Source: Fictibacillus arsenicus
GTDB lineage: Bacteria; Bacillota; Bacilli; Bacillales; Fictibacillaceae
Reading direction: 5' to 3'
DNA: 64,000 nucleotides
Assembly (NCBI RefSeq): GCF_001642935.1
Contig: NZ_CP016761.1
Location: forward strand, 3,038,001 to 3,102,000
A model generated the notes under the pieces. The model had not been told where the DNA came from, made no database searches, and saw only the letters and a list, made by a program, of their open reading frames with translations. Positions within the stretch are counted from its first letter, which is position 1, and each line of letters opens with the position of its first letter. This document shows, one piece after another, positions 1,355-64,000 of this stretch. Position numbers and translations under genes: made by a program.

Positions 1355-1425
1355 CACGTTAGCCAGTATTTTTCTCACGTTAAATTAGATAATCGCACGT
1401 TATTTGTAAAATAACCACGAGTCGA
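1355..1425. repeat. Short 20-21 bp periodic tract, CACGTTA units
   Basis: CACGTTA recurs at 1355, 1376 and 1396, with a degraded CACGA at 1416, giving steps of 21, 20 and 20 bp. The bases between the motifs are not conserved. It lies between a terminator (1472-1530) and the terminator at 1213-1250, in a stretch of about 430 bp without a gene. It is one of seven tracts of similar period in the window. Confidence 0.6.
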
Positions 1426-1471
1426 CACACATGGACAAATTTCGCAACTCACATACCCCTATACCCAATCA

Positions 1472-7633: not shown

Positions 7634-7895
7634 TTTTTGTTGCTCTTGAATGAGATTAATTTCCGTTGCAGGGCTCGCTTTCCTCAGGGTGTGCGATGAG
7701 CCCAATCGTCGCTTAGCGACATTGATTGGTCTCATCTGTCCCACTCATCCTGCAGGACAAGGAAGGCTCCGGCAGCGATACATCGCACGAAGAAAATGTG
7801 ATTTTCATTTTCGAGGAGTCTCGCCCTTCCACTCCAATTAATTTTCCAAGGAAGAGTTTTCCTAAATATCCCAGTAGCAACATCTTTAGATACGC
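7634..7895. repeat. Dispersed MITE-like element, copy B (diverged)
   Basis: Diverged copy: TTGTTGCTCTTGAATGAG, then GATTAATTTCCG ... CTCGCTTTCC at one end and CCAATTAATTTTCC ... AGTAGCAACATCT at the other. First of three adjacent copies that fill the 860 bp between the DUF3055 gene and the next gene. Short open frames inside these copies are not credible genes. Confidence 0.65.
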
Positions 7896-7908
7896 TCTTT
7901 TCTTAAGG

Positions 7909-8126
7909 CTCTTTTCTAAAAGATTGTTGCTTTAGGCTTTTTCTATTCTCATCATGTGCTAGTTGATAGGAGCGCAAGGTTGCCGACTCCTACGGGACGA
8001 GCGGTCAGGTGGAGACTCCTAACGGCGCAAAGCGGCAGGAGGCTCACCGCACGCCCCGTGGAAAGCGAGCAACCTGGAGCGGAAATCAACTACTTTCAAA
8101 AGCAACAATGTATGCGAAAACAGGCT
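7909..8126. repeat. Dispersed MITE-like element, copy C
   Basis: Nearly complete copy from CTTTTCTAAAAGATTGTTGC to GCAACAATGTATGCGAAAAC. The conserved GC-rich interior is GGAGACTCCTAACGGCGCAA, then GGAGGCTCACCGCACG, then GGAGCGGAAATCAAC. Its orientation is opposite to copy B, so B and C form an inverted pair. Confidence 0.8.
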
Positions 8127-8140
8127 TTCTTAAAGGTAAA

Positions 8141-8382
8141 AAGCAACCTTGCAAGATGATTGGAGTGCAAGGTGCGTGCCTACCACATGAGAAGCTTCTC
8201 GCTAGGCATGCGACGAGGAAGCTCACATCGGTAGCATTTACTTGTAGACGCAGGAGCAAGGATACTTCCATGAAGCGGTCAGGTGAGACTCCTAATGGTG
8301 CAGAGCGCCAAGGAGGCTCACCGCACGCCACGCGGAAAGCGAGCATCCTGGAACGGAAATCAACTACTTCACAAATGAGGTT
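8141..8382. repeat. Dispersed MITE-like element, copy D (subtype with extra module)
   Basis: Same ends and GC-rich core as copy C, plus an additional module (CTCGCTAGGCATGCGACGAG ... TTGTAGACGCAGGAG). Related modules occur in the copies at 35905, 52517 and 42996, defining a second subtype. Confidence 0.7.
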
Positions 8383-13679: not shown

Positions 13680-13700
13680 TTGGGATGAACGCGTATTCCG

Positions 13701-14057
13701 TATGGCGATCATAAATTCCGTATGGCGATCATAAATTCTGTATGGCGATCATAAATTCCGTATGGCGATCATAAATTCCGTATGGCGATCATAAATTCCG
13801 TATGGCGATCATAAATTCCGTATGGCGATCATAAATTCCGTATGGCGATCATAAATTCCGTATGGCGATCATAAATTCCGTATGGCGATCATAAATTCCG
13901 TATGGCGATCATAAATTCCGTATGGCGATCATAAATTCCGTATGGCGATCATAAATTCCGTATGGCGATCATAAATTCCGTATGGCGATCATAAATTCCG
14001 TATGGCGATCATAAATTCCGTATGGCGATCATAAATTCCGTATGGCGATCATAAATC
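13701..14057. repeat. 20-bp tandem repeat, about 18 copies
   Basis: The unit TATGGCGATCATAAATTCCG is repeated head to tail from 13701, with 17 complete copies and a partial eighteenth ending at 14057. Only one copy deviates (TTCTG for TTCCG near 13740). The array ends in CTCGAGCTGCGCTCTG followed by ATTTATGATC, an inverted match to part of the unit. Because 20 is not a multiple of 3, every frame meets a stop, so it is not coding. There are no spacers, so it is not CRISPR. Confidence 0.97.
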
Positions 14058-14089
14058 TCGAGCTGCGCTCTGATTTATGATCTAAGAAT

Positions 14090-17590: not shown

Positions 17591-17845
17591 ATAAAAAGCG
17601 ATTAATAGACAAGGAAATAACCTGCTATCAATCACTTAAGTAATTTATGGTTTTCCTCATCGATCAGTAGTCCTCCACTGCGTAGTTACCCTCGCAGTGA
17701 CAGTTTTACACTTATTTAGTGTAAACCCAGCAAAAATGAACAGACCGTCATTTTTTGCTTCGGCGGAAGTTCCTTTCCTTTTTCTTCACAGACGTCACTC
17801 TCTGAAAAAGTACTCTTAAAATCCGCTCCTCTACCCCATCGGTGA
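17591..17845 (-). ncRNA. Lysine riboswitch (L box) with terminator
   Basis: On the minus strand the leader carries L-box landmarks in order: GGTAGAGGAGCGGA, TTAAGAGTAC, GCCGAAGCAAAAAATGA, TTTGCTGGGTTTACAC, AAACTGTCACTGCGAGGG and GCAGTGGAGGACTACTG. The expression platform is a terminator with arms AGTGATTGATAG and CTATTAATCGCT followed by TTTTTATTTT (17591-17637). Lysine binding would favour termination. The NhaC-family start codon is about 75 bases downstream. Confidence 0.93.
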
Positions 17846-20129: not shown

Positions 20130-20154
20130 TTTTATCGCCTCCTATTTTTCTTGG

Positions 20155-20372
20155 GCAGTTTTCGTAACTGTGATTGCTATTGGAAGATGTTGATTTCCGC
20201 TCCAGGTGCTCGCTTTCCGCGGGGCGTGCGGTGAGCCTCCTGGCGCTTTGCGCCGTTAGGAGTCTCACCTGTCCGCTCGTCCCGCAGGAGTCTCGCACCT
20301 TCCGCTCCAATCAACTTTTCAACGAAGATTTTTCTAAAAATGTCCGTAGCAATAATCTTTTAGAAAAAGCCA
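20155..20372. repeat. Dispersed MITE-like element, copy E
   Basis: Well-preserved copy in the orientation opposite to copies C and I: GATTGCTATTGGAAGATGTT, GATTTCCGCTCCAGGTGCTC, GCTTTCCGCGGGGCGTGCGG ... GCTCCAATCAAC ... GTAGCAATAATCTTTTAG. It occupies most of the 390 bp between the divergent thyA and yunC genes. Confidence 0.8.
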
Positions 20373-33150: not shown

Positions 33151-33248
33151 ATCATATAAAAAGTCTGCATAATTACATAAAAAATGACTATCATCACATA
33201 AAAATGACTTACTATCACATAAAAATACGTCCTCATCACATATTTTTT
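33151..33248. repeat. 21-bp periodic tract, ATCACATAAAAA units
   Basis: Four complete 21-bp units start at 33151 (ATCATATAAAAAG), 33172 (ATTACATAAAAAA), 33193 (ATCACATAAAAAT) and 33214 (ATCACATAAAAAT), plus a partial one at 33235 (ATCACATATTTT). The first 12 bases are conserved, the last 8-9 are not. It lies between metQ and yurZ. Confidence 0.8.
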
Positions 33249-33286
33249 CAATTCCATCCATTTATTGTCCACCTTAAATTAAACAT

Positions 33287-35855: not shown

Positions 35856-35904
35856 TAGAACTAACCTCATTTCCATCTGTAATACTTTAAATTGCAATTA
35901 GAAG

Positions 35905-36125
35905 CTGTTGATTTCCGCTCCAGGATGCTCGCTTTCCGCGGGGCGTGCGGTGAGCTTCCTCTGCGCTTTGCGCCGTTAGGAGTCTTAATAAAACCTGTGT
36001 GCTCCTGCGTCTACAAGCAACTCCTAACGAAGTGAGTTTCCTCGTCGCATGCCTTGCGAGGAAGAATACTCAAGTAGCTGGCACGCTAATCCCGCTGGAG
36101 TCTCGCACCTTGCAATCCAATCAAC
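35905..36125. repeat. Dispersed MITE-like element, copy F, inside the met leader
   Basis: Copy with the extra module: GCTGTTGATTTCCGCTCCAG, GCTTTCCGCGGGGCGTGCGG ... GCGTCTACAAGCAACTCC, TCGTCGCATGCCTTGCGAGG ... CGCACCTTGCAATCCAATCA. It lies between the riboswitch terminator and the metN start, so it is transcribed as part of the metNIQ mRNA. Confidence 0.75.
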
Positions 36126-36137
36126 AAACCATTCAAA

Positions 36138-36322
36138 TAAAAAAATGCCCTCTGCTTCAATATGAGCAGAAAGGCATATAATATTCTATGCGCGTTCTCC
36201 TCATCTCCCAAGACAATTGAATGCCTTGCAGGAATTGGCACCTTTCTAGTCAGTATGGATTACATACAGCTAGCGGTTGCCGGGTTTCATAGGGCCAGTC
36301 CCTCCACCTCTCGTGATAAGTT
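36138..36322 (-). ncRNA. SAM riboswitch (S box) with terminator
   Basis: The minus strand reads CTTATCACGAGAGGTGGAGG, GACTGGCCCTATGAAACCCG, GCAACC, then GGTGCCAATTCCTGC and GAGATGAGGAGAACGCGC. These are the classic S-box landmarks. The expression platform is a terminator ATGCCTTTCTGC / GCAGAGGGCAT followed by TTTTTTT (36138-36178). SAM binding should stop transcription of metNIQ. Confidence 0.96.
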
Positions 36323-36356
36323 AAAGCGTTGCGTTATTAAGTTAAAACGATGCATT
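36315..36356. repeat. Two-unit 21-bp tract in the met leader
   Basis: GATAAGTTAAAGCG (36315) and ATTAAGTTAAAACG (36336) head two 21-bp units that share 15-16 positions. They lie between the promoter and the S box. Confidence 0.45.
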
Positions 36357-36374
36357 TTTGAATCACTGAGATGA

Positions 36375-36403
36375 ATAATATCACCGCTGTCGATTCGTGT
36401 CAA
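36375..36403 (-). promoter_or_regulatory. Sigma-A promoter of metNIQ
   Basis: Perfect TTGACA (36398-36403), 17 bp spacer, TATTAT (36375-36380) on the minus strand. The -35 box overlaps the last codons of yusD. Confidence 0.8.
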
Positions 36404-36744
36404 ACATTTTTAACACTTTTAATCAAGACGCCTGCAGATATTTGTTCCCAATGAGAGCTTAAATAGAATATGGCTTCCCATTTCAGCCGCTGTCTTAACG
36501 TCCCGTGAAACTCGATCATCTCTTGGCGAAGGAGTGTTGTAAGCTTCATTTTCCCATCTAGCATCATAGATAGATACTTTGGATTTCCTCTGAAAACAAC
36601 GATACGATTACGTTCTCCTTCTCTGTAATCAATCCTCAAGGTAGTTTCATCATTGAGACTAAATCTAGGTTTAACCGGAATGTTATACAATGGCAAGTAT
36701 GGACTTTTTCCAATCTGTCTTTCAAAAAAGGTGACATCCAGCAT
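36400..36744 (-). CDS. yusD: SCP2-like protein YusD
   Basis: 114-residue protein with a sterol-carrier-protein-2-like domain (VVFRGNPKYLSMMLDGKMKL ... IEFHGTLRQRLKWEAIFYLS). Ligand unknown. The position upstream of the met operon matches B. subtilis yusD. A clear ribosome binding site (GGGGGG) precedes the ATG. Confidence 0.65.
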   Translation of the reverse strand: MLDVTFFERQIGKSPYLPLYNIPVKPRFSLNDETTLRIDYREGERNRIVVFRGNPKYLSMMLDGKMKLTTLLRQEMIEFHGTLRQRLKWEAIFYLSSHWEQISAGVLIKSVKNV

Positions 36745-39840: not shown

Positions 39841-40065
39841 AGGCTGTTTTCCAAAAGATTGTTGTTTCCTCGTCATTCAGTGAATCCTCTACATTGACAA
39901 GTTGATAGGAGTGTAAGATGCGAGACTCCTGCGGGAGTAACGGGACAGGTGAGACACAGCAGGTGCAAAACGACAAGGTAGCTCACCGCACGCCCCGCGG
40001 AAAGCGAGTATCTGAAACGGAAATCAACCTCTTTCAAGAGTAACAATGATTGCGAAAACAGCCTA
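39841..40065. repeat. Dispersed MITE-like element, copy G (complete ends)
   Basis: The clearest copy: AGGCTGTTTTC (39841-39851) and its exact complement GAAAACAGCCT (40055-40065) close a 225-bp element. Inside are AAAGATTGTTG / GTAACAAT and the TTGATAGGAGTG / GAAATCAACC inner ends around a GC-rich core. AAATA occurs close to both ends and could be a target duplication, though it is one base off on the left. Confidence 0.8.
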
Positions 40066-40072
40066 AATAAAC

Positions 40073-40133
40073 AAGAAAACCTCTTTTCCCTTCATCAGAA
40101 AGCACCGATGAAACGCAGGGGAAAAAGAGGATT
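40073..40133 (-). terminator. Terminator of yusF
   Basis: Long hairpin with CCTCTTTTTCCCC / CCCTTTTCCTCTT-type arms (40080-40130), beside the MITE-like copy, downstream of yusF. Confidence 0.5.
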
Positions 40134-40845: not shown

Positions 40846-41151
40846 ATGGCTTTGACTGAAAAAATGACGAGGGAAGAAGCAGGGCGACTTGGAGGAAAAA
40901 AGACTTCGAAATCTCATGGCAAGGAATTTTTCCAGCAGATCGGAAAAAAAGGGGGAACAACTACTGCGGAATCTCACCAAGCAACCTTTTACCAGGAGAT
41001 CGGCAGAAAAGGCGGGAAATCAACGTCCCTTTCACATAACAAAGATTTTTATCAAAAAATCGGCCAAAAAGGCGGACAAGCCACCTCAAAAACCCATGAC
41101 AAGAGCTTTTATCAAAACATCGGTGCTAAAGGCGGAAGTGTAAGCCGGTAA
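40846..41151 (+). CDS. gsiB: General stress protein GsiB (KGG repeats)
   Basis: 101 residues, very hydrophilic, built from about four 20-residue repeats of the type FYQxIGxKGGxxTSxSHxKD (KGG motif, LEA-like). MTREEAGRLGGKKTS at the start is typical of GsiB. Such proteins protect against desiccation and other stresses. AGGAGG precedes the ATG. Convergent with yusG. Confidence 0.92.
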   Translation: MALTEKMTREEAGRLGGKKTSKSHGKEFFQQIGKKGGTTTAESHQATFYQEIGRKGGKSTSLSHNKDFYQKIGQKGGQATSKTHDKSFYQNIGAKGGSVSR

Positions 41152-41187: not shown

Positions 41188-41292
41188 ATTAATTTGAAAA
41201 TTGGTAATGATAATTTGACGACTTTCTTTAATAATTTGACGAATTATCCAATTAATTTCACCTAATGGCTAACTAATTTCACCAATCCATTT
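41188..41292. repeat. 21-bp periodic tract, TAATTTGAC units
   Basis: Five exact 21-bp steps start at 41188, 41209, 41230, 41251 and 41272, headed ATTAATTTGAAAA, GATAATTTGACGA, AATAATTTGACGA, ATTAATTTCACCT and ACTAATTTCACCA. The first 11-12 bases are conserved; the rest varies. Located between convergent gsiB and yusG, before their shared terminator. Confidence 0.85.
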
Positions 41293-41296
41293 TCTA

Positions 41297-41331
41297 TAAA
41301 AAAGAGGATGATTATCATATCATCCTCTTCG
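41297..41331. terminator. Terminator between gsiB and yusG
   Basis: AAGAGGATGAT / ATCATCCTCTT perfect arms with A-rich and T-rich sides. Confidence 0.75.
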
Positions 41332-42684: not shown

Positions 42685-42831
42685 AGGGTATAAGAAGGGG
42701 GCAGAATTTGTCGAGGATTGTAGACTCGTGGATAAACAGGTGAAACTTTTCGATTGAGGGATAAAACTCGTGGATAAACTGGCCAGATTTCTGGATTGAT
42801 GCCGCTTTTTTCTGGAATCGAACTCTCGGAC
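42685..42831. repeat. 21-bp periodic tract with CGTGGATAAAC units
   Basis: Seven exact 21-bp steps from 42685 to 42831. The best conserved are CGTGGATAAACAGGTGAAAC (42727) and CGTGGATAAACTGGCCAGAT (42769), with related TCTGGATTGATGCC (42790) and TCTGGAATCGAAC (42811). Because 21 is a multiple of three, the minus strand reads as a degenerate heptapeptide repeat (PVYPRVL, PVYPRVY), but the frame lacks a ribosome binding site. Located in the 680-bp gap between yusI and fadE. Confidence 0.8.
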
Positions 42832-43142: not shown

Positions 43143-44927
43143 TTAAACAACGTAGCGTTCTTCTTCAAGAAGCAATACAGCGATTTCCCGCTTCTTCTTG
43201 ATAACATTCACAGGCGTATGGCGTGTCAGCTTCTTTAATGCAGAAAGCATCATGCGCAGCATATCCCCTTCTTCAACAGCAATAATGGATTCCTTCGCAT
43301 GTGCTTCAATGCGGTTGAATGCTTCCTGGCAATACACTTCTGTGTATAGAAGCTTTTGTTTTGCCTTTTCTGCTCCAGACTTATTGATGGCTTTTTCCGT
43401 ACGTAAAAGTACAGATTCCATGCTGTAGATCTCGCTGATAATATCAGCAAGATTAGCTAATACCTCTTGCTCTTGTTCAAGCTTTGGACCGAATTTTTGA
43501 ACAGCAAGGCCAGCAGTCATCAAGAAAATTTTCTTAGCCATAGAAACTAAGTACTTTTCTTGATCCAGCGGTTCAGTACCGACTTCTACAGGCATAAGCA
43601 TCATCAGTTCTTGCTGAAGAGCTGTTGCTTTTTGGATCAATGGCAGTTCATTTTTCATCGCTTTTTTAACGAGTGTCCCCGGAACAAGCAAGCGGTTGAT
43701 CTCGTTCGTTCCTTCAAAAATACGGTTAATACGTGAATCACGATATGCTCCCTCGATCTCGTATTCTGACATGAAGCCGTATCCGCCATGGATTTGAACG
43801 CCTTCATCTACTACATAATCAAGTGTTTCAGAAGCAAATACTTTGTTTAAAGAACATTCAATCGCATATTCTGCAATCGCTTTTGCAAGCTCACGTCCGT
43901 CTTTTTGCTTTTCATCTGAAAGTGCGCCTAACCGGTTTTCGAACAGCCCTACTGTTCTGTAAACAGAGCTTTCAGATGCGAATGTCGAAATTGCCATGTT
44001 CGCAAGCTTTTCTTGAATCAAGCTGAAAGAACTGATTTTGCGTTTGAACTGCTGGCGTTCGTTTGCATATTTTACAGAAACCTCAAATGCTCGTTTCGCA
44101 GCTCCCACACATCCCAAAGCTAGCTTGTATCGGCCGATATTCAGAATGTTAAATGCGATCAAGTGCCCTTTGCCAGCTTCCCATAACAGATTTTCCTTTG
44201 GTACAGCTACATCTTCCAAAATCAATGTACGTGTAGATGAACTCTTGATACCCATCTTCTTTTCTTCCGGTCCAGTAGAGACACCTTGTAACCCTCTTTC
44301 AACGATAAAAGCTGAGAATTTTTCGCCGTCGATTTTTGCATATACAACGAAAACATCAGCAAATGCAGAGTTCGTAATCCACTGCTTTTCACCATTTAAA
44401 ATATAATGAGTACCTTCAGCATTAAGCTTCGCTGTTGTTCTCGCCCCAAGTGCATCTGATCCTGAACCCGGCTCTGTTAAGGCGTAAGCTGCAATTTTTT
44501 CACCAGTTGCTAACTCTGGCAGATACTTTTTCTTCTGTTCTTCGTTTCCAAAAAGAACAATTGGAAGAGAGCCGATACCTACATGAGCTCCATAGCTGAT
44601 TGAAAAACCGCGTCCGCGCGCAAATTTTTCAGTGATCAACGATGACGAAATCTTATCTAGACCAAGTCCGCCATATTCTTCTGGAACATCTGCGCCTAAA
44701 AGACCAAGCTCACCTGCTTTTGTAAGCAATTTGCGTGATACCTCAAAGTCATGGTCTTCCATCTTTTCAAGGTGCGGCACCACTTCTTTTGCTACAAAAT
44801 CTTCAGTAGTCTTTGCGATCATTAAATGTTCTTCTGAAAAATCTTCCGGTGTGTAAATATCTGCTGCAGCGAGGTCTTCGATTAAAAAACTTCCGCCGAT
44901 GATCTCTTTTTCCACTGTGTTTGACAT
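43143..44927 (-). CDS. fadE: Acyl-CoA dehydrogenase FadE
   Basis: 594-residue FAD-dependent acyl-CoA dehydrogenase, the first oxidation step of fatty-acid beta-oxidation. Signatures AAYALTEPGSGSDALGARTT and QIHGGYGFMSEYEIEGAYRD. The extra C-terminal domain (about residues 400-594) is typical of this long FadE type. Third gene of fadNAE. Confidence 0.94.
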   Translation of the reverse strand: MSNTVEKEIIGGSFLIEDLAAADIYTPEDFSEEHLMIAKTTEDFVAKEVVPHLEKMEDHDFEVSRKLLTKAGELGLLGADVPEEYGGLGLDKISSSLITEKFARGRGFSISYGAHVGIGSLPIVLFGNEEQKKKYLPELATGEKIAAYALTEPGSGSDALGARTTAKLNAEGTHYILNGEKQWITNSAFADVFVVYAKIDGEKFSAFIVERGLQGVSTGPEEKKMGIKSSSTRTLILEDVAVPKENLLWEAGKGHLIAFNILNIGRYKLALGCVGAAKRAFEVSVKYANERQQFKRKISSFSLIQEKLANMAISTFASESSVYRTVGLFENRLGALSDEKQKDGRELAKAIAEYAIECSLNKVFASETLDYVVDEGVQIHGGYGFMSEYEIEGAYRDSRINRIFEGTNEINRLLVPGTLVKKAMKNELPLIQKATALQQELMMLMPVEVGTEPLDQEKYLVSMAKKIFLMTAGLAVQKFGPKLEQEQEVLANLADIISEIYSMESVLLRTEKAINKSGAEKAKQKLLYTEVYCQEAFNRIEAHAKESIIAVEEGDMLRMMLSALKKLTRHTPVNVIKKKREIAVLLLEEERYVV

Positions 44928-48664: not shown

Positions 48665-48882
48665 ATTGTTTCTAAAGGATTGTTGCTTTTGGCTTTTGCG
48701 ATTTTCATCATTTGCAAGTTGATTGGAGCGCAAGGTGCGAGACTCCTACGGGACGAGCGGTCAGGTGGAGACTCCTAATGGCGCAAAGCGGCAGGAGGCT
48801 CACCGCACGCCCCGTGGAAAGCGAGCAGCCTGGAGCGGAAATCAACTACTTTCAATGGCAATAATGTATGATAAAACAGCTT
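48665..48882. repeat. Dispersed MITE-like element, copy I
   Basis: TTCTAAAGGATTGTTGCTTT, AAGTTGATTGGAGCGCAAGG, GGAGACTCCTAATGGCGCAA ... GGAGCGGAAATCAACTACTT, GGCAATAATGTATG, AAAACAGC. It is very close in sequence to copies C and K. Fills the gap between fadN and the proline dehydrogenase gene. Confidence 0.85.
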
Positions 48883-48886
48883 TTAA

Positions 48887-48919
48887 TAAAAAAAGAACTC
48901 CCATGTAGAGAGTTCTTTT
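48887..48919 (-). terminator. Terminator of the proline dehydrogenase gene
   Basis: AAGAACTC / GAGTTCTT arms followed by seven T residues on the minus strand. Confidence 0.8.
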
Positions 48920-52516: not shown

Positions 52517-52798
52517 AGACTGTTTTCTTATACTTTGATGCTTTTGAAAGAGGTTAATTTCCACTTCAAGACTCGCTTTCCGCAGGGTGTGCGTTGAGCC
52601 TGATCGAAGATATTAAAGATATGGAGTCATAGAAGCGTATTGCTCCTGCGTCTACAAGATAATTCTATCGAAGAGGACTTCCTCGTCGCATGCCTTACGA
52701 GAAGGTTACTCAGGTGGTTGGCACGCACCTTGCACTCAATCAACTTGTCAATGAAGAGAATGAAAAATGAACCAAAAGCAACAATCTATAAGAAAGCA
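52517..52798. repeat. Dispersed MITE-like element, copy J (extra module)
   Basis: GACTGTTTTCTTATAC, GAAAGAGGTTAATTTCCACT, CTCGCTTTCCGCAGGGTGTG, GCTCCTGCGTCTACAAG, TCGTCGCATGCCTTACGAG ... CACTCAATCAACTTG, AAAAGCAACAATC. It lies exactly where a gerB gene would be expected downstream of gerC. Confidence 0.7.
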
Positions 52799-63699: not shown

Positions 63700-63924
63700 G
63701 GCCTCTTTTCTAAAAGATTGTTGCTTCCGATTCTTTTTTGAAAACACTTCATTGGCAAGTTGATTGAAGCGGAAGGTGCGAGACTCCTATGGGACGAGCG
63801 GTCAGGTGGAGACTCCTAATGGCGCAAAGCGGCAGGAGGCTCACCGCACGCCCCATGGAAAGCGAGCGCCTGGAGCGGAAATCAACCACTTTCAACAGCA
63901 ACAAAATTTACGAAAACAGCCTTT
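63700..63924. repeat. Dispersed MITE-like element, copy K
   Basis: GGCCTCTTTTCTAAAAGATT, AAGTTGATTGAAGCGGAAGG, GGAGACTCCTAATGGCGCAA, GCACGCCCCATGGAAAGCGA, GGAGCGGAAATCAACCACTT ... CGAAAACAGCC. Very similar to copy I, 15 kb away. Confidence 0.85.
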
Positions 63925-64000
63925 ATTTTTTAATTACTCCGCACAAAACGCGGTCCCCCGAATTTCCAGCAGGATCTGTTTTGTAATCATCTGCGTCTGC

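What the first reader, a model, noticed from the sequence alone, without database searches (positions are those of the whole stretch)
41188..41292. A class of intergenic tracts sharing a 20-21 bp period but not sequence
Seven unrelated intergenic tracts (1355, 13701, 23521, 33151, 36315, 41188, 42685) show the same step of 20-21 bp, each with its own unit. In the degenerate ones the first 7-12 bases of the unit are kept and the rest drifts. This tract has five exact steps. Random slippage would not be expected to fix the same step at seven loci. The period is two helical turns, which would place all conserved blocks on one face of the DNA: a possible binding platform, bend or nucleoid/termination element. 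None is inside a recognised gene.
Basis: partly seen in the sequence, partly recalled or inferred. Interest (0 to 1): 0.8.

Follow-up and report, generated by a model that had tools for sequence, protein, structure and literature searches.

The report
Phased two-turn repeat arrays beside genes
This bacterium carries many short stretches of DNA next to gene ends in which a roughly ten-letter word returns every 20-21 letters, two turns of the double helix; in the copies tested the words are kept by evolution while the letters between them drift, which points to an undescribed kind of protein docking site.

Summary
In a 31% sample of this Fictibacillus genome, intergenic DNA shows a sharp peak of word recurrence at 20-21 bp with harmonics; arrays of four or more units number 34 at this step and 0-1 at each of 12 other steps. 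Five of the seven tracts are secure; 23521 is weak and 36315 adjoins a SAM riboswitch.

Arrays form dispersed families. Family A (53 cap copies) usually has six cores every 20/21 bp, then a constant ~40-bp cap; different copies carry different cores before the same cap. Family B usually has five cores and another cap. Arrays of three or more units were never in divergent spacers and are enriched in convergent ones; they are gained, lost or replaced at orthologous sites.

In six orthologous family-A pairs, cores and cap change about three times more slowly than spacers. One core word (CGCTCA) at 20-21 bp step occurs in 17 of 199 Bacillales genomes, at 24-25 bp in none.

Best reading: selected protein-binding arrays on one DNA face at gene 3' ends. 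Binder and benefit are unknown. Seven searches of an open-access library found no description.

The parts
41190..41294 (.). The finding's array (called family D here): five 21-bp units, core TAATTTSAC, between the stop of the + gene 40846-41151 and a hairpin
   Evidence: orthologous spacers
41302..41329 (.). Hairpin (AAGAGGATGAT...ATCATCCTCTT), probably a terminator by its form, that ends the array spacer; kept in most congeners with or without array
   Evidence: sequence, congeners; terminator role inferred by eye
1355..1451 (+). Family-B element: cores at 1355, 1376, 1396, 1416 and cap CACGAGTCGACA...GACAAATTTCGC
13695..14082 (.). Family-C array: 18 near-identical 20-bp units (13695-14056) followed by an inverted copy of the core (GATTTATGAT)
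   Evidence: partial matches elsewhere in the genome
23521..23598 (.). Weak, degenerate three-unit tract (TTTATRRSYY); membership uncertain
33151..33250 (.). Array with core ATCACATAAAAA, five units at 21 bp; present in the orthologous spacer of Fictibacillus sp. BK138
36317..36395 (.).
42701..42824 (-). Family-B element on the minus strand: cap at 42730-42701, cores at 42730, 42751, 42772, 42793, 42814; conserved in BK138 and F. norfolkensis

Best explanation
These are selected, protein-binding DNA arrays. An unidentified sequence-specific protein is thought to bind a ~10-bp core that returns every two helical turns, so that the bound molecules line up on one face of the DNA as a short row of nearly set length (usually six cores in family A, five in family B) that ends at a conserved cap. 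New arrays arise by tandem duplication of a whole 20-21 bp unit; afterwards selection holds core, phase and cap while spacers drift. The arrays lie at gene 3' ends and most likely act there as a local boundary between transcription units (roadblock, supercoil sink or nucleoid anchor). Shown: period, core/spacer/cap anatomy, unit number, placement, gain and loss, rate contrast in family A. Inferred: protein binding, origin of old arrays by duplication. Guessed: the boundary role.
For: Sharp 20-21 bp peak with harmonics and 34 arrays of >=4 units against 0-1 at each of 12 other step pairs. Family-A steps 21/20/19/22 = 178/172/4/2, 51 of 71 parsed copies with six cores. In six clean orthologous pairs the cores change at 18/300, cap 15/252, spacers 54/283, right flank 30/173, fourfold sites 290/1225; core versus spacer Fisher p = 2e-6. 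Spacers holding arrays of >=3 units: 18 convergent, 22 co-directional, 0 divergent of 40 with both neighbours known. In family A the neighbour on the array side reads toward the element in 44 of 56. Fresh array of 18 near-identical units. CGCTCA triple at step 20-21 in 17 of 199 genomes, at step 24-25 in 0 of 199.
Against: No binder is known and none was sought by experiment. Cap A is confined to Fictibacillus and absent from one congener, G017, so nothing essential depends on it. At the finding's own spacer 11 of 16 congeners have no array. Sampled genomes of neighbouring genera have few or none. The rate contrast was measured on six pairs chosen for clean alignment, all family A. The replication-direction bias adds nothing beyond gene direction.
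Confidence: 0.5

Rival explanations
1. Dispersed selfish or mobile elements (REP- or MITE-like): array plus cap is copied as a unit by an unknown enzyme into safe places behind genes; cores and cap serve the element's own spread, not the host.
For: Copies with near-identical spacers at unrelated loci; 53 and 62 cap copies in two genomes; presence/absence between species and different families at one spacer; avoidance of divergent spacers fits safe-haven insertion.
Against: Family A has no terminal inverted repeat and no target duplication; cores and cap stay constrained at orthologous sites where spacers drift, whereas an inserted dead copy should decay evenly; no match on plasmids or phages.
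Confidence: 0.27
2. RNA element: the arrays act in the 3' UTR or as a small RNA whose repeated cores bind an RNA-binding protein, and the cap is a hairpin.
For: Arrays follow gene 3' ends in a set orientation; the cap has an inverted repeat ACGTGT/ACACGT that can fold.
Against: No compensatory change in 93 caps: 14 of 558 positions changed, 10 of them breaking the pair; fold energies close to shuffles (mean z -0.69 sense, -0.54 antisense, 40 elements); an RNA linker would not need steps of exactly 20-21.
Confidence: 0.1
3. Ordinary minisatellites: slippage makes tandem copies that then decay.
For: 18 near-identical copies at 13695; one orthologous pair differs by a 21-bp gap, one unit (L020/L302).
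Against: Decay would be even along the unit and is not; unit number is nearly fixed; one cap follows arrays of different cores; no other unit length is used to a like extent.
Confidence: 0.06

Closest known systems
Iterons of plasmid replication origins (recalled, not from a call)
   Same: A few (about 3-7) direct repeats of about 17-22 bp, set so that initiator molecules lie on one face of the DNA; conserved core, looser rest
   Different: Here tens of dispersed copies per chromosome in gene-end spacers, not one per replicon; no initiator gene identified; no plasmid or phage match to family A
parC centromeres bound by ParR, e.g. tandem 20-bp repeats (recalled)
   Same: About 20-bp step; a row of DNA-binding dimers would be the same kind of structure
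   Different: Many loci, many core sequences, chromosomal gene ends, no ParM/ParR pair looked for or found
REP/BIME elements of enterobacteria (recalled)
   Same: Dispersed, intergenic, at gene 3' ends, avoiding promoters
   Different: Direct two-turn-spaced cores instead of palindromic units; several unrelated core sequences
Borg tandem repeats (PMC9879509, passages seen)
   Same: Intergenic head-to-tail repeats; one described example has a 20-nt unit six times followed by a 21-nt unit; fast turnover
   Different: Borg units are described as perfect copies, with varied unit lengths and about half inside ORFs; no constant cap or drifting spacer is described in the passages seen
TAACTGA direct repeats of Beggiatoaceae (PMC4679880, abstract and outline seen)
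   Same: Many intergenic sets of short direct repeats, patchy taxonomic spread, unknown binder
   Different: One heptamer, mostly just upstream of start codons in the genome studied; no two-turn spacing with free spacers

Membership tests
Minisatellite / VNTR | Head-to-tail copies of a whole unit that vary in number | tested here: inconclusive
   Met by 13695 (18 near-identical units) but not by family A (six cores in 51 of 71, spacers nearly without information)
Minisatellite / VNTR | No part of the unit is held by selection | tested here: not met
   Core 6.0% against spacer 19.1% changed in six family-A ortholog pairs
REP/BIME | Intergenic, at gene 3' ends, avoiding divergent spacers | tested here: met
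   18 convergent, 22 co-directional, 0 divergent
REP/BIME | Palindromic, hairpin-forming unit | tested here: not met
   Units are direct repeats; whole elements fold close to shuffles; cap pairing shows no compensation
MITE / insertion element | Terminal inverted repeats and target-site duplication | tested here: not met
   Family A only: at most 0.5 bit left of the first core; no duplication signal in 67 elements. Family B ends in GGTAT/ATACC-like words in some copies, seen by eye and not tested
CRISPR array | Constant repeat with unique spacers beside cas genes | not tested
   Cores of 8-12 bp and spacers of 9-13 bp do not fit; cas genes were not searched for
Iteron / parC type binding array | Direct repeats at about two helical turns with a conserved core | tested here: met
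   Steps 178 x 21, 172 x 20, 4 x 19, 2 x 22; core constraint
Iteron / parC type binding array | Bound by a cognate Rep or ParR protein | not testable with these tools
   Needs pull-down or footprinting; no candidate gene was searched for

The most novel reading that the evidence does not exclude
A new class of bacterial chromosomal element defined by geometry rather than sequence: a nearly fixed number of short words at two-turn phase plus a constant cap, with the word exchangeable as a whole (before the same cap: GAGCG, GCGTG, GGGTG, and in other species CAGGTGG or TTCTATGAGC). It would imply a rapidly changing DNA-binding protein, or a set of paralogues, that co-evolves with its sites in patches across Bacillales and builds short one-face rows at gene ends.
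Probability: 0.35. Interest if true: 0.92.

Novelty: categorically new. Interest (0 to 1): 0.8.

Why it matters
Bacterial intergenic repeats are usually catalogued by sequence; this class shares period and anatomy instead, so such catalogues would miss it. If the arrays are binding sites, they point to an unknown, fast-evolving chromosome-organising or transcription-boundary system in Bacillales, with orthologous sites at which core replacement, gain and loss can be followed directly. That it is undescribed rests on seven searches of an open-access library; most subscription papers were out of reach.

Tried and rejected
Chance: rejected by shuffles (five shuffles of 286 spacers) and by control step sizes, 12 in the own genome and 13 in 77 other loci. 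Coding remnants: genes show only the general multiple-of-three signal, and the mixture of 20 and 21 breaks any frame. One sequence behind the peak: true for lag 29 (GAGACTCCT element), not for 20-21. RNA structure. Replication polarity: family-A caps point with the fork in 43 of 53 (hand count; terminus at about 2.12-2.2 Mb from GC skew), but genes lean the same way in most samples, so I read it as following gene direction. Regulator beside divergent copies: the ORFs at L225, L233 and L292 showed no obvious regulator by eye; no family search was made. Plasmid or phage copies of family A: no match. Terminal repeats and target duplication for family A: not found. A cap-B-like word near the finding's own tract (window 41164, 3 mismatches) is taken as chance. 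Close relatives: arrays of >=4 units in G019 2 of 108 spacers, G023 1 of 57, G024 1 of 56, G021 0 of 65, G033 0 of 114, G037 0 of 54. Cap A is absent from all 23 genomes of other genera searched and from congener G017. The reversed-pattern control gave 33 hits in 14 of 199 genomes, some clustered; these may be arrays of another core and were not examined. Literature searches returned nothing on this class.

Full report
What was examined. The window is positions 3038001-3102000 of a 4.06 Mb single-contig genome. By its 594-aa protein at 43143-44927 (an acyl-CoA dehydrogenase by recall) the closest named genome is Fictibacillus sp. BK138, 99% identity, so I take the genome to be a Fictibacillus species.

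The period is real. I sampled 60 evenly spread 20-kb stretches plus the window (1.264 Mb, 31%) and predicted genes with a simple in-frame hexamer score of my own. In 748 spacers of 50-1000 bp, exact recurrences of at least 8 bp (words of period 1-3 excluded) occur in 33 spacers at lag 20 and 44 at lag 21 (66 in union), against a mean of 4.1 for lags outside the series; harmonics at 40-42 (24, 21, 23), 61-63 (16, 11, 13) and 82 and 84 (11, 11) follow. Lag 29 (22 spacers) is mostly one dispersed repeat. In a first sample of 286 spacers, five dinucleotide shuffles gave a mean of 1.3 and a maximum of 6 per lag against 16 and 18 observed. Arrays of at least four units: 34 at step 20/21 and 0 or 1 at each of 12 other step pairs. 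A second Fictibacillus, G007, shows the same (10 and 18 of 244 spacers; other lags mean 1.4).

The seven tracts. Chain scores against 1000 shuffles each are. Five tracts are secure; 23521 is weak; 36315 has two clear units and overlaps/adjoins a SAM riboswitch.

Anatomy. Arrays fall into families that recur across the genome. Family A ends in a cap with consensus TGAGCGAACGTGTAATAAATATAAGAACACGTACCGTAAA. With up to three mismatches in a 27-bp stretch of it there are 53 copies in this genome, 62 in BK138, matches in 16 of 17 other congeners and none in 23 genomes of other genera; the reversed control gives none in all 41. I collected 93 distinct copies (the best-matching loci plus those in the samples, so not a full census). 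Information falls to near zero right after the cap and is at most 0.5 bit left of the first core. Of 71 copies whose cores could be parsed, 51 have six cores (3 to 8 overall). Steps are 21 (178), 20 (172), 19 (4), 22 (2); spacer positions carry 0.1-0.5 bit in the commonest type. Twenty-two of the 93 were not parsed; read by eye, some are GAGCG-type with a changed last core and several, from other species, carry other cores with the same cap, such as CAGGTGG or TTCTATGAGC. At one site with matching flanks this genome has GAGCG units and BK138 has GCGTG units before the same cap (L236/L300). Family B has cap CACGAGTCGACA, followed in many copies by GACAAATTTCGC; of 29 copies parsed with at least four cores, 20 have five including that of the cap; several of the 29 are orthologues of the 42685 element, so they are not independent.

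Placement. Of 40 spacers with arrays of at least three units and both neighbours known (43 in all), 18 are convergent, 22 co-directional and none divergent; 5.8 convergent and 10.0 divergent were expected by length (p = 4e-6 and 1e-5). For 30 of 53 own and 30 of 62 BK138 copies of family A, the neighbour on the array side reads toward the element in 44 of 56 (three own loci dropped for lack of a cap match at four mismatches, one without an upstream gene). In family B the cap end faces a gene 3' end in 9 of 10 own copies. My simple terminator scan found a terminator-like hairpin between gene and array in 21 of 57, so a strict link to terminators is not shown.

Evolution. At the finding's own spacer, of 16 congeners found by similarity, two have the same array with six units, one has a related core, one a family-B-type array (its left anchor matches poorly), 11 have none and one could not be anchored. 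The 42685 array aligns with BK138 and F. norfolkensis, and further congener loci carry the same cap and cores. For family A, ten own-BK138 pairs had matching flanks (one of them on one side only). All ten together: core 58/559, spacer 112/441, cap 28/422, flank 231/850 changed. The six that align unit by unit (I dropped the four with a missing unit, a changed core type, poor alignment or one flank only): core 18/300, spacer 54/283, cap 15/252, right flank 30/173; fourfold sites of seven window genes against BK138 290/1225. Spacers thus drift near the neutral rate while cores and cap are held. Gene conversion between copies would have to skip the spacers to give this, so I read it as purifying selection.

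Wider occurrence. In 77 loci of other Bacillales (803 spacers) arrays of at least four units number 7 at step 20/21 and 0-2 at each of 13 other step pairs; examples are Rossellomorea (L058), Sporosarcina (L124) and Metasolibacillus (L130); two of the seven (L088, L131) look less typical. One core word, CGCTCA three times at step 20-21, occurs in 17 of 199 genomes from 12 of 98 genera, 799 overlapping matches summed by hand from the table, 540 of them in five Fictibacillus; at step 24-25 it occurs in 0 of 199. The reversed control gave 33 hits in 14 genomes and 2.

Mechanism. Shown: period, anatomy, placement, turnover and the family-A rate contrast. Inferred: a protein reads the core, because pairing in the cap is not conserved (no compensatory change in 93 caps) and RNA folding is unremarkable, while almost only steps of two helical turns are used. 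Guessed: a boundary role between transcription units, from the position at gene ends. Main rival: a selfish dispersed element whose cores serve its own spread; against it stand the absent terminal repeats and target duplications in family A and the constraint after insertion.

Novelty. Seven searches of the open-access library gave no description. Nearest among what I saw are Borg tandem repeats (PMC9879509, passages) and TAACTGA repeats (PMC4679880, abstract and outline); two stem-loop surveys were seen only as listings. Comparisons with iterons, parC and REP are from recall. I rate it categorically new because each known kind considered failed a tested feature or could not be tested, with the caveat of the limited library.

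Noticed in passing
window 7639-8369, 20145-20317, 35892-36060, 39892-40074, 48669-48893, 52520-52758, 63749-63925: A separate dispersed repeat (GAGACTCCT...GCTTTCCGC type) recurs in this genome and in L055/L056; it makes the lag-29 peak and three of the 72 two-unit arrays.
   Followed up: partly
window 17660-17841 (minus): Lysine riboswitch, 123.1 bits.
   Followed up: no
window 36198-36322 (minus): SAM riboswitch, 83.5 bits; beside it, at 36399 minus, a word one mismatch from cap B at the end of the gene 36400-36744.
   Followed up: partly
own genome 3.427-3.461 Mb (L245-L252): The TCTATG array family is clustered: seven of its eight matches lie within 34 kb.
   Followed up: no
G126 against G154, G179, G204 (one genus, unnamed): CGCTCA triples number 28 in one species and 1, 0, 0 in three genus mates, which suggests recent gain.
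   Followed up: no
L058:11897-12120 (Rossellomorea aquimaris): A six-unit 21-bp array ends before ...CTCGCATACCCC, which resembles the end of family-B caps in Fictibacillus; may be chance.
   Followed up: no
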